A DNA stretch of 64,000 nucleotides, taken from positions 25,665 to 89,664 of the forward strand of contig CAXIUT010000096.1 in assembly GCA_964035545.1 (NCBI GenBank). The letters are read 5' to 3'. The DNA is from Bugula neritina (Eukaryota > Bryozoa > Gymnolaemata > Cheilostomatida > Bugulidae). The notes beneath the pieces were generated by a model that saw nothing but the letters and a program-made list of their open reading frames with translations, had not been told where the DNA came from and did not search any database. The translations under genes were made by a program, and so were the position numbers. Below, one piece after another: positions 11,211 through 51,401 of this stretch. Position 1 is the first letter of the stretch. Each line of letters starts with the position of its first letter.

Positions 11211-11285
11211 GGGGTTGGGGTTGGGGTTGGGGTTGGGGTTGGGGTTGGGGTTGGGGTTGGGGTTGGGGTTGGGGTTGGGGTTGGG
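11211..11285. repeat. Interstitial telomeric tract A (G-rich)
   Basis: About twelve perfect GGGGTT units between the 3' ends of the DHHC gene and the converging PFK-2/FBPase-2 gene. Unique sequence continues on both sides without a gap. Confidence 0.95.
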
Positions 11286-11554
11286 AAAATTAAAGGAAGA
11301 GATATGAATGGATAGTTTAACTAATAACTTAATAAAGAGTTTATTCCTTTCAAAATCAAACAAATCAAAGAATAGAATAAAAATAAGGATCAAAATAAGA
11401 AAAAATAAGTTAAAAATGATAAAAATTAATAATCTACTTCATCAAAAAACATTATAAAAAATCATAAAATACAAAAAAATCTGAAAATAAATAACCTTAG
11501 CCTAACAAAACATCTTAAACGAATACTTCCTCTAAATAATAAACAAAACCTGAA

Positions 11555-13114
11555 TCACCTGATGATGTAAAACCAATTTAAATCAAACCAGCCTAAACAA
11601 AAAAATGATCTTTAAACTTTTATTAATAAAATTAATATATGGAAGGTATTATTGATAATTATGTTAAAGAAATCACATTCCTGATTTTAGTTTGATCCAA
11701 ATTTTTGAGGAGCTTTAGGTTTTTGAGACCCATCATAATCAATAGAAAACTTCTTTTTTGGAGCTTTACTAATTTCTAGTATTTTACCCGTATCCAAACA
11801 TGATGTAACATATTACTAAGTAAAAGTATAATTTTGAGGAGTCAATTTGATAACTATATGCAAAGGAACAGGTATATAAGGTAGTTGAGTAAGATCAACA
11901 TTAAAAAGAAGTATCCTGAAATACATCTAAGAATAGCCCTGATGACCAATTACCAGCACAGAATGTTTTTGTCTTTCAATCCAATAAATCAGAAGGTTAC
12001 AAACGACCTATAGCATCAATGTAAGATTCACCAGAAGGATATCTAAACATCAATTTCTACAATGCTCTTTCCTTCGATATTTATGGATGTTTTTGTGATA
12101 TTTAGTAATAAGTCATATTTCGCAAATACCTGCATTTATTTAATCAGAAGTCTCAAAGGAATTGATTCTTTTTAATTATTTTTTATATTAGATGTCTGTT
12201 TCAATTGTACGGTGAAGAGTACTAGTGAGAATAGTCAAATTTTATCTTTATTATTTATCAGATATTAGCTTATTCAAAACTACAGGGAGTATTTTAGAAT
12301 ATTTCTTACCTTTTTCAGATAGACCGCTATTCCCTCCTACTCTAATCTTCTTGTATTATACTAGGCTTTATCCATGTCTTGAAAGATATATTTTTCTTTT
12401 TGGCGAAATCGTTAGATTGATAGTATAAGTCATGATTTTCTAAGCAAGATAGCCATTAATTTGATTAATTTATATTCCTTATCCAACATTGATGGTTTTA
12501 ATATAAGAAAATCCCTATTCTTTACTAAGCGATTCATACACTTTTTAATAATGATTAATTCTTTTTCTAAAATCATCTAATGCCTCCTCCATAGACAACT
12601 ATTTATAATCCATACATTCAGTTTGACTTTCTATATATTCTATTCTATGATTCTTTCATCATTGCAAATAGATTATATCCATATTAACTGATATTTACAT
12701 TTAAGGGGTTGGGGTTGGGGTTGGGGTTGGGGTTGGGGTTGCGGGTTGGGGTTGGGGGTTGGGGTTGGGGTTGGGGTTGCGGGTTGGGGTGATTGATATA
12801 AGTAATCAAGTCATCGAGGCATAGCTGAGCCACATGTTCTCTGATTTCATAGTACTATTTGTTCTCATAATTAAAGAATGCACTATTTGATTCGATATTA
12901 TGGTCTACATACTTTTCATTCGTACCAATCATGTACTTCCTACGATAGTTACCTACATTAAATACTTGAGTGTTGAAACCCAACCAATTCAAAAAGCGAT
13001 AAATCTTCTTGCTTATATACGACTTCCCACGGGCTGGAACTTCATTAAATCAAACATACGACCTGCCATTGCTACCACCACTTTCTCAGGATTAGCATTG
13101 TAAATTGACTGCAT
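11555..13114 (-). pseudogene. PFKFB: 6-phosphofructo-2-kinase/fructose-2,6-bisphosphatase, interrupted by telomeric repeat
   Basis: The N-terminal kinase part starts at ATG 13112-13114 and has the P-loop [14 protein letters not shown] (regenerated by removing a 20-nt intron) and FNVGNYRRK. It runs to ...LCLDDLITYIN and then into telomeric tract B. Beyond the tract the protein resumes at SICNDERIIEQNI, so ~35 residues that normally hold the FDATNT kinase motif are missing. The phosphatase half keeps IYLSRHGQS (RHGE in the family), GGNSGLSEKGKK, RTIET, FRYPSGESY and VIGHQ. I need at least five 1-nt frame changes that do not fit introns. Both catalytic halves appear dead, so this is most likely a recent pseudogene; sequence errors are an alternative. 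Confidence 0.75.
12705..12789. repeat. Interstitial telomeric tract B (degenerate, G-rich), inside PFKFB
   Basis: Imperfect GGGGTT array with two GCGGGTT units and a five-G unit, flanked on both sides by parts of the same gene. The point changes distinguish it from the perfect terminal arrays and suggest an older insertion. Confidence 0.95.
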
Positions 13115-13210
13115 AATTTAAGTACTTAATTACTTAATAATTATAGATAAACTTTAATCTGGTTTTGATAAATGTAAAATTATAGATTTATTGATATGAA
13201 GTTTTGGAGA

Positions 13211-13688
13211 TCACTTCTTTTTACCCATTTTAGAAAGAGGGTCGAAAGGGTCCACAGCTATGTTAAAGTAATAATACGAGGAGTCCATTTAGGCTTTTTC
13301 CAGCCTTTAGGAAGACGTCTTTCAAGGCATCTTAGATCTTTATTCTCATGAATATTGTATTTTCCTTCTTTGTAAAGTTCAACATTTTGTCCTTTTCCAT
13401 ACTGCCCTGAAGATGTTTCGAAAACTTTCCCATCCATCTTTCGTATCTCATCTTCTAATTCTTGAATTCTATCATTAATGGTTTATTTCTTATCAGATTT
13501 TTCTGCTCCTACTTTTTCTGGAGAAAATCCTGCATGAGTTAAAGATTACCTTTGGTATAATATCCCCATTGATTATTCCATTTTTGTTAGGCATCAAGTT
13601 AGTTATTGACTCTGATGGTCCAGTTTCTATCGATAGAAACTACATCTTTTGGGAGTTTAAGAGCTTTTGGGTCTACTTTTTCTGCCAT
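13211..13688 (-). CDS. CIMIP1-like (C20orf85/DUF4490) ciliary microtubule inner protein
   Basis: ~145 residues from ATG 13686-13688 to TGA 13211-13213 with two 20-nt introns. The N-terminal block DVVSIDRNWTIRV...QQKWNNQWGYYTKG matches the hallmark W(K/R)xR...W..NWGF pattern of C20orf85-type proteins, found inside ciliary doublet microtubules. A short acidic coiled coil and a basic tail follow (LPKGWKKPKW...DPFDPLSKMGKKK). A ciliary role is expected in a ciliate but inferred from the short motif. Confidence 0.65.
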
Positions 13689-49432: not shown

Positions 49433-50533
49433 TCAATATATTTACTTCAATTTTTGATTATACTTAGAAATATAATTAAGAATAAAAGTATATATTTGAT
49501 CCATACAACAAAAGATACTTAACTATATTTTACTCTGACCCATCTATTTCTGTCTCTTCTAATCCAAATTCAATATTCTAAGCTAATGTTTACTATTCAT
49601 CAATAAATAATTTATCTTCATTTACTACTATCTACGCTACTATTGCCTACCATCCAACCACCACATCAATTTCATATAAAACGATCCTATCTATTTCCTC
49701 TATATTCCACAAAATACAAGACTTATCTGCAGTTCGTTTCTTTTGTTTCTCTAGGCTGATAACATCCACTAGTATTATAAAAATTTAAATGTCTTTGTCT
49801 TCTTCTCGTTTATCTGACCCACGTCGTGCAACTTCCAACTCAATTTCGCATGAATTTTAGGGTTTATCTTCTTGTTCAGGATTGACTTACGAAGGACTTC
49901 ACATAGATTGTGAACTGATGTCACCTTTCGCGACTTCATTATCAACTCAAATATCTTCTACTAGTCGTTATTGCCATTTCGAATGGCTCTATCTAAAATT
50001 TAATTTAGTATCTTTTCATGTAGCCCTTTTATCTTATCCTATGAATTCAAATATACTTCACTTAGATGCTGTGCAAGAAACGATATGCAAGCATTAAGTA
50101 GAGAATACCAACACTGCGACCCGTTTTCTTGATTTTTAAGTTTTTTATGAGTCTACTAAAGAAACGGTATGCAATTATTAATACTAATAGAAGAAATAAC
50201 TATCTACCCTATGAAGTTTTACTGGAATAGATCAATTCCAACAAAATCTGCAAATCGTAATGTACCTATCAACAATTCCGTCTCCAATGTTTTCTATCGA
50301 TATATCAACATATTTTTAGTCAGATAGTTTTAGAACATCATAACGACATCTGTATTAGCACATTTTAGTGGTATTTGGTATGTATCTTGGATTGTTTTTT
50401 TATGCGATTATGACATCTATGTCATCAAATCAAAACGACTTATCTGAAATAAAGTTGATCCTTTGTTTTCCTTCTATACGTAGATTTTTATGTCGCTTGA
50501 TGTCAGTTCTCGGTCGAGGATGTTGTCCTACAT
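49433..50533 (-). CDS. BTB/POZ-like protein
   Basis: 366 residues, intron-free, ATG 50531-50533, TGA 49433-49435. The N-terminus follows a BTB-like order (DIKIYVQKENKG, then FQISRFDLM, IPLKCANTDVVMMFQNYL, and LLIGTLRFADFVGIDLFQQN), followed by a helical region as in BACK domains. The C-terminus is Gln-rich and basic. BTB proteins often recruit Cullin-3. The assignment rests on motif order only. Confidence 0.55.
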
Positions 50534-50679
50534 TCAATTATTCAAATTATATTTTTACTATTAATTGAAAATATTAGTTTATTATTTTATTTAACTACCC
50601 GAAAGGGGTACTATGGATTATTTCAAGTAAATTACGATAAAATTGACTAAATTATGAATAAAATAAAGACTATAAAAAA

Positions 50680-51219
50680 TCATTCATATCCTTATGACTC
50701 AAATATGTCATCTTCCTTTATTTCTTCTTCTTCTTGATCTTCCTCTTACTCATGTTTGATCTTGATGTGGATCATCAAGGTCTCCTCGTCTCGGTATGTC
50801 CTTTTACAATAAGGACATATCTCTCCTGCCTCCTCGATCCTTCTCCTTCTTCGCCCAGCTATCGGGCCCACTGCCTCTTCATAATCGTTGAAGAGGATCT
50901 ACCATAAAAAAAGAGGTACCTCTATCTTATCTAGCCTCTTAGAGAAGCCCTAGAGTTGCTCCTGGAACGCTACGATATTTTGCCTTCCTACCTCATTGAG
51001 TAGGAAGCGCTTCCAAAATTTATCGTAGTAGTTCGTCTGATGGTTATACTGCTAGCACTCGGCTGTCAAGTCGAAGTGCTAGCAGATGAAGGACTTATTG
51101 TTGGCCTTCAACTTCTGGATTCTCTCTAGAATCTGGCCCTCTATTTTAGTTATTCTATCATAGAGGGCGGTCTCCTAGAGATTCGGGGTGTCTCTTTGCT
51201 TGAGCAACTTTTTTTTCAT
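50680..51219 (-). CDS. C2H2 zinc-finger coiled-coil protein with GC-richer codon use
   Basis: 179 residues, intron-free, ATG 51217-51219, TGA 50680-50682. N-terminal coiled coil (ETALYDRITKIEGQILERIQ), a helical middle, one C2H2 finger (EICPYCKRTYRDEETLMIHI followed by KH), and an acidic tail. Codon use is clearly GC-richer, with more CTC/CTG, AGG and TAG than its neighbours, which may mean high expression or a different origin. Confidence 0.7.
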
Positions 51220-51332
51220 TTATTATACTATTATTATAAATTTGCCTTCTAGAGTCCGCAATTTATAGAAGAATAGTCCGTATTTGATAATTTATCAATA
51301 AATTATCATTTTTATCAGGAGTTTCCTGTAAA

Positions 51333-51401
51333 CCCAACCCCAACCCCAACCCCAACCCCAACCCCAACCCCAACCCCAACCCCAACCCCAACCCCAACCC
51401 C
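51333..51401. repeat. Interstitial telomeric tract H (C-rich)
   Basis: Eleven to twelve CCCCAA units, 113 nt upstream of one minus-strand start codon and 220 nt downstream of the next gene's stop: an intergenic position. Confidence 0.95.

What the first reader, a model, noticed from the sequence alone, without database searches (positions are those of the whole stretch)
11211..51401. Eight interstitial telomeric tracts with uniform polarity within each chromosome
Besides true ends, G4T2/C4A2 tracts of 64-85 nt occur at 11211, 12705, 27150, 33662, 34499, 38112, 42012 and 51333. Both tracts in molecule 2 are G-rich on the + strand; all six in molecule 3 are C-rich. Random insertion would rarely give such uniform polarity. 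They may mark alternative telomere-addition sites, telomerase-healed breaks, telomere-bearing transposon remnants, or insertions made by assembly or polishing from telomere-capped isoform reads.
Basis: partly seen in the sequence, partly recalled or inferred. Interest (0 to 1): 0.92.

Follow-up and report, generated by a model that had tools for sequence, protein, structure and literature searches.

The report
Telomere caps pasted over a genome
The "internal telomeres" are most likely an assembly error in which the capped ends of many short, overlapping ciliate chromosomes were written over the genome letter for letter; they mark real chromosome ends but are not real internal repeats.

Summary
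The eight tracts are in the assembly where stated (64-86 nt), with uniform polarity within each gap-free contig. They are most likely not interstitial DNA. (1) Assembly-wide, outer edges of interior tracts lie mostly on one strand of the contigs (342:76; 221:27). Contig strand is arbitrary, so this reflects how contigs were written; all 4 polarity flips inspected contain a 200-N gap. (2) Interior and terminal tracts have the same mean length (76.4 and 76.6 nt) and mostly the same outer register, 5'-CCCAAC, a main C-strand terminus in Tetrahymena: each tract looks like a whole chromosome end. (3) In the two genes where it can be measured, the tract replaces coding sequence of equal or near-equal length, in frame: 29 codons where homologs have 29, 31 and 29 residues (38112); 30 codons where PFKFB has 27 (12705). 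A toy layout that writes capped read ends base for base reproduces this. The organism is a ciliate reading UAA (probably UAG) as Glu, as peritrichs do, inside a metazoan-like assembly. The biology beneath, many alternative telomere-addition sites, is known from Paramecium bursaria and Blepharisma. No raw reads were available; replacement was undecided at two other sites.

The parts
2832..3031 (.). 200-N scaffold gap between contigs 1 and 2, telomere at both sides
23337..23536 (.). 200-N scaffold gap between contigs 2 and 3, telomere at both sides; tract polarity changes here
11211..11285 (-). interior tract, G-rich on +, 75 nt, outer edge CCCAAC
12705..12790 (-). interior tract, G-rich on +, 86 nt with repeat errors; lies in a PFKFB gene in place of about 27-30 codons
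12113..12704 (-). PFKFB gene, part downstream of the tract (end of 6PF2K domain and start of the His-phosphatase domain)
   Evidence: Pfam 6PF2K 7e-18; frames
12791..13080 (-). PFKFB gene, part upstream of the tract ([10 protein letters not shown] ... DDLITYIN); upper end approximate
27150..27225 (+). interior tract, C-rich on +, 76 nt, outer edge CCCCAA
33662..33735 (+). interior tract, C-rich on +, 74 nt, at the end of a coding-like frame that starts at 32449; replacement or insertion undecided
34499..34582 (+). interior tract, C-rich on +, 84 nt, between coding-like segments on opposite strands
38112..38194 (+). interior tract, C-rich on +, 83 nt; replaces coding sequence of equal length in a gene for a SKKTLDDYL-domain protein
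38195..38471 (+). SKKTLDDYL-domain gene, part downstream of the tract (LKERKIKHVIEKV, then a short intron inferred from the frame change)
42012..42075 (+). interior tract, C-rich on +, 64 nt; cuts a condensin subunit 2 (Cnd2) frame; replacement or insertion undecided
41556..42011 (+). Cnd2 frame running up to the tract
   Evidence: Pfam Cnd2 4.7e-10
51333..51401 (+). interior tract, C-rich on +, 69 nt, no strong coding segment within about 500 nt
57985..61365 (+). chitin synthase used to read the genetic code (TAA = Glu at invariant columns)

Best explanation
The contigs come from the somatic (macronuclear) genome of a ciliate with the peritrich genetic code, present in the sample of a metazoan-like organism. 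That genome exists as many overlapping minichromosomes whose ends, each with about 76 nt of telomere, fall at many alternative places, some inside genes. Reads that begin or end at such a cap were overlapped with reads that run through the same place. The cap was tolerated as an unaligned overhang, and the layout then wrote the capped read end over the longer molecule base for base. Each interior tract is thus a real chromosome end written over a real stretch of equal length that belongs to longer molecules. A layout that always keeps the same end of each read gives one polarity per contig; scaffolding turns whole contigs over at N gaps. Shown: presence, lengths, register, strand bias, gaps at inspected flips, replacement in frame in two genes, TAA = Glu. 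Inferred: the read-level events (no reads were available), that all tracts arose the same way, and TAG = Glu from few sites.
For: Strand bias 342:76 (69 of the 100 listed rows are true outer edges, the other 31 repeat defects inside tracts) and 221:27. 15 of 15 long interior tracts uniform in five contigs. A gap lies at 4 of 4 flips inspected: two in C94, C20, C39 (predicted, then fetched). Interior and end lengths equal, 8 interior and 5 end tracts. Outer register CCCAA in 73 of 100 listed rows, at 5 of 5 ends and 6 of 8 interior tracts of the window; 5'-CCCAAC is a main C-strand terminus in Tetrahymena (PMC2998447 passages). In-frame replacement at 38112 and 12705. Toy layout: 760 C-type and 0 G-type under one rule, 0 and 750 under the mirror rule, no length change.
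Against: No reads were seen. The rule I recall for miniasm-type programs would give C-type tracts on the written strand, whereas most here are G-type; the assembler and its output orientation are unknown. At 42012 the frames do not fit exact equal-length replacement unless an intron lies in the lost part, and joining the flanks lowered the Cnd2 score (39.3 bits for the left half alone, 26.7 and 30.7 joined). At 33662 the frames are undecided. Two distant hits (P0134, P0172) align past the 38112 junction without a gap, though with poor similarity on the left side. Of 98 hits only three have both halves clearly. PFKFB has 27 residues where the window has 30 codons. Flips in C15, C35, C40 and C58 were not inspected. 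One short forward tract in C93 (about 24 nt) goes against that contig's polarity. One end in C39 begins CCAAC and C24 begins with CCCCAAA repeats, not CCCAAC.
Confidence: 0.92

Rival explanations
1. Genuine interstitial telomeric repeats in the chromosomes, made by telomerase at healed breaks or by fusion of ends.
For: The tracts are nearly perfect repeats joined to unique sequence on both sides.
Against: The strand bias across contigs has no biological cause, since contig strand is arbitrary. The outer edge has the register of a processed chromosome end. Conserved coding sequence of equal or near-equal length is missing at two sites.
Confidence: 0.03
2. Assembly or polishing inserted the telomere of capped reads between flanks that are otherwise intact (insertion, not replacement).
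For: Same source of sequence. Removing the tract leaves an open frame at 38112 and, with two tract bases kept, at 42012.
Against: 29 residues present in three homologs are missing at 38112, and the true frame resumes in register; the conserved VFDATNTTR stretch of PFKFB is missing at 12705. Only two sites could be measured, so insertion at others is not excluded.
Confidence: 0.04
3. Remnants of telomere-bearing transposons of the germline genome.
For: Such elements exist in Oxytricha (TBEs, named in PMC9942806, passages).
Against: No transposase family among the flanking proteins scanned (not every frame was scanned). The tracts occur singly with one polarity per contig, and a 12-kb search found only paralogs at 65-69% and a simple repeat elsewhere.
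Confidence: 0.01

Closest known systems
Paramecium bursaria minichromosomes with variable telomere-addition sites (PMC7702705, passages)
   Same: C4A2/T2G4 telomeres, dense and variable addition sites, about 30% of them in coding regions, short multi-gene chromosomes; the authors call one assembled contig artificial.
   Different: Different genetic code (peritrich type here); in that paper the sites were seen in reads, here as tracts inside contigs.
Alternative telomere addition sites (ATASs) of Blepharisma stoltei (PMC9942806, passages)
   Same: Telomere-bearing reads all over the genome; 46,705 potential sites.
   Different: Other telomere repeat (CCCTAACA) and a distant ciliate lineage; internal tracts in the contigs are not reported in the passages seen.
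Tetrahymena chromosome ends (PMC2998447, passages)
   Same: C strand ending 3'-CAACCC-5', that is 5'-CCCAAC.
   Different: Tetrahymena has a second main terminus, 3'-CCAACC-5'; here CCCAA dominates (73 of 100 rows).
Read layout of miniasm-type assemblers (recalled, from no call)
   Same: Base-for-base placement of an overhang gives equal-length replacement and one polarity per contig (toy model).
   Different: The rule as I recall it gives the opposite strand to the one mostly seen; the program used here is unknown.

Membership tests
Alternative telomere addition sites of ciliate somatic chromosomes | Telomere of normal length and terminus at an internal genomic position | tested here: met
   Mean 76.4 nt interior against 76.6 at ends; same outer register
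Alternative telomere addition sites of ciliate somatic chromosomes | Both capped and through-going molecules exist at the same position | tested here: inconclusive
   Gene continuity across 38112 and 12705 implies through-going molecules; reads were not available
Alternative telomere addition sites of ciliate somatic chromosomes | Sites fall in coding as well as intergenic sequence | tested here: met
   At least 3 of 8 cut a gene: 12705, 38112, 42012
Interstitial telomeric sequence | Repeat physically continuous with both flanks in the chromosome | tested here: not met
   Indirect: strand bias and replacement of coding sequence at two sites; no reads
Telomere-bearing transposon | Transposase gene or repeated element beside the tract | tested here: not met
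   No transposase in the flanking frames scanned; no repeated element in the 12 kb searched
Peritrich ciliate | UAA and UAG read as Glu | tested here: met
   TAA: Glu in 20 of 20, 58 of 59 and 60 of 60 homologs at three columns, against one column with Gln 13 and Glu 7; TAG from few sites. Peritrich use: PMC10553269, passages
Peritrich ciliate | 18S rRNA placement | tested here: inconclusive
   Rfam search did not complete; an exact 18S pattern matched nothing in the assembly, host included

The most novel reading that the evidence does not exclude
The somatic genome of this peritrich-code ciliate is a population of overlapping telomere-capped minichromosomes whose ends fall almost anywhere, genes included, with one strongly preferred C-strand terminus (5'-CCCAAC). 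By overwriting, the assembly has recorded a few hundred of those ends, a ready map of telomere-addition sites.
Probability: 0.7. Interest if true: 0.5.

Novelty: not a real feature. Interest (0 to 1): 0.36.

Why it matters
It shows how an assembly can turn capped chromosome isoforms into false internal telomeres, each of which (in this window) hides 64-86 bases of real sequence. A few hundred such places seem to exist in this one assembly (estimated), so gene models there would be broken and any count of interstitial telomeres would mislead. Read the right way, the tracts map alternative chromosome ends in a little-studied ciliate group. Replacement of equal length plus one polarity per contig is a simple signature for finding the same fault elsewhere.

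Tried and rejected
Rejected: real interstitial repeats, transposon remnants, and pure insertion (see rivals). Tried without result: another copy of the locus lacking the tract (only paralogs at 65-69% and a simple repeat); homologs of the joined Cnd2 protein (none at E 0.001 among 3568 candidates; that query read TAA/TAG as Gln, and searches of this kind were then used for 38112); a structure search with the frame beside 33662 (none); an exact 18S pattern (none); insertion or replacement at 42012 and 33662 (undecided); Pfam scans beside six tracts of C10, C11 and C94 for a further replacement test (domains found, no test possible). I first read the 38112 junction as an exact insertion, because removing the tract leaves an open frame; the homolog alignment overturned that. 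A first toy simulation had a slicing fault and was replaced. The built-in controls (pattern read backwards) matched 35 and 60, and 367 and 738 places; they pick up inner edges of tracts and true ends and are no null model.

Full report
What is there. The window is the end of an 89,664-bp scaffold (positions 25665-89664) in an assembly of 215.8 Mb in 295 contigs. Two 200-N gaps cut it into parts of three contigs; the contig ends at both gaps and at the window's right end carry C4A2/G4T2 telomere. The first contig adds two C-rich tracts, and two other contigs read in full, C10 and C11, have three and two interior G-rich tracts: 15 of 15 long interior tracts in five contigs are uniform within their contig.

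Whose genome. Large chromosomes of the same assembly (C1 is 35.6 Mb) have TTTGGGG-type telomeres. A 3-kb sample of C1 holds an exon in the standard code that I recognise from memory as like IFT56. The small contigs with C4A2 are a ciliate: with TAA and TAG open, a chitin synthase appears whose best named relatives are Tetrahymena and Paramecium. At three nearly invariant columns TAA stands where homologs have Glu (20 of 20, 58 of 59, 60 of 60); one column points the other way (Gln 13, Glu 7). TAA also stands for Glu in RHGES and WIESICND of a PFKFB gene. TAG as Glu rests on fewer sites. Reassignment of both codons to Glu is described for Peritrichia (PMC10553269, passages). No 18S was found, so 'peritrich' is inferred from the code alone.

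Strand bias. I searched the whole assembly for the outer edge of a tract. A pattern with three C after a non-C gave 342 reverse and 76 forward matches; of the first 100 listed, 69 are true outer edges and 31 are defects inside tracts. A pattern that leaves the register free but wants G or T outside gave 221 and 27 (some tracts give two rows). In its 100 listed rows, 49 of 58 scaffolds have reverse matches only, 4 forward only, 5 both. The strand in which a contig is written has no biological meaning, so such a bias comes from the writing. Where polarity changes along a scaffold, a gap should lie between. It does in all four changes inspected: two in C94, one in C20, and one in C39, predicted first and then fetched. 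Changes in C15, C35, C40 and C58 were not inspected. The forward match in C93 is a tract of about 24 nt, of another kind.

The tracts look like whole chromosome ends. The 8 interior tracts of the window average 76.4 nt, its 5 true ends 76.6. On the C strand the outer edge begins CCCAAC at 5 of 5 ends and 6 of 8 interior tracts, and CCCAA in 73 of the 100 rows listed (69 plain, 4 followed by five C); one in six is expected if the register were free. One end in C39 begins CCAAC, and C24 begins with CCCCAAA. In Tetrahymena most C strands end 3'-CCAACC-5' or 3'-CAACCC-5' (PMC2998447, passages); the second is 5'-CCCAAC. So the outer edge is what a blunted physical chromosome end would give.

The tracts replace sequence at the two sites that could be measured. 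At 38112 the left flank encodes ...LTGKEYI and the right flank LKERKIKHVIEKV, followed after a short inferred intron by LKWRELYAG...SKKTLDDYL. Three metagenome homologs have both halves (56, 58 and 53% identity over 99, 86 and 89% of the query), with 29, 31 and 29 residues between those two points; the window has 2+83+2 = 87 nt, 29 codons, in the same frame. Most of the 98 hits match the right half only; two distant ones (P0134, P0172) align past the junction without a gap but poorly on the left. At 12705 a PFKFB gene runs on the minus strand: its upstream part ends ...DDLITYIN two bases before the tract, the downstream part resumes KCKYQLIWIESICND two bases after it, 90 nt or 30 codons, in frame. 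With 30 X in that place the three alignments shown (PFKFB2 and PFKFB3) have 27 residues there, including VFDATNTTR. A biological insertion would not remove an equal length of coding sequence in register; base-for-base writing of one read end over another would. At 42012 the tract cuts a Cnd2 frame, but the right side alone does not match Cnd2 and joining lowered the score; at 33662 the frames also leave the question open.

Mechanism. Suppose capped molecules overlap longer ones, the cap counts as a tolerated overhang, and the contig is written by keeping a fixed end of every read. A toy model gave 760 interior C-type and 0 G-type tracts under one rule, 0 and 750 under the mirror rule, and no change of contig length. 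The rule I recall for miniasm-type programs would give C-type on the written strand, whereas most contigs here show G-type; the program and its output orientation are unknown to me. The read-level events are inferred.

Biology beneath. Each inner edge should mark a molecule that ended there. At least three of eight cut a gene (12705, 38112, 42012). In Paramecium bursaria, also with C4A2 telomeres, addition sites are dense and highly variable and about 30% lie in coding regions (PMC7702705, passages). Blepharisma has 46,705 potential sites (PMC9942806, passages). So the kind is known. My searches listed no paper reporting it for a peritrich, but they were few, only listings were seen, and the library is partial.

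Verdict. The interstitial repeats are most likely not a real feature of the genome but a record, made by the assembly, of alternative chromosome ends.

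Noticed in passing
window 57985-61365 and 11600-13900; L026: Ciliate contigs read TAA (probably TAG) as Glu, the peritrich code, with short introns inferred from frame changes; the large chromosomes of the same assembly hold a standard-code exon and TTTGGGG telomeres.
   Followed up: partly
L022:168-192 (C93): A short tract of about four C4A2 units, forward, against the polarity of that contig and without the usual outer edge; it may be a genuine short internal repeat.
   Followed up: no
L009:1-248 (C94), L024:1-141 (C51), L021 at C20:47446-47620: Two telomere tracts 14-89 nt apart at a contig end, same polarity: fine-scale variation of the addition site.
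   Followed up: no
window, inner edges of all 13 tracts: Read on the G strand, most tracts start with a full GGGG (9 of 13 C-strand tracts end ...AACCCC), so telomere addition may favour one register.
   Followed up: no
window 34499-35140 against C87:7164-7782 and C258:1908-2407: A paralog in C87 (68%) lies next to a telomere tract at a matching place, so an addition site may be conserved between paralogs beside the gene's end.
   Followed up: no
whole assembly: An exact conserved 18S stretch has no match anywhere, host included; rRNA genes may be absent or withheld.
   Followed up: no
window 51943-53772 (-): A 609-aa frame matches the Pfam profile of Giardia variant-specific surface proteins (6e-15), probably a cysteine-rich surface protein.
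   Followed up: no
L023:1-102 (C24): Contig end begins with two CCCCAAA units before C4A2, mixing the two telomere types of the assembly.
   Followed up: no
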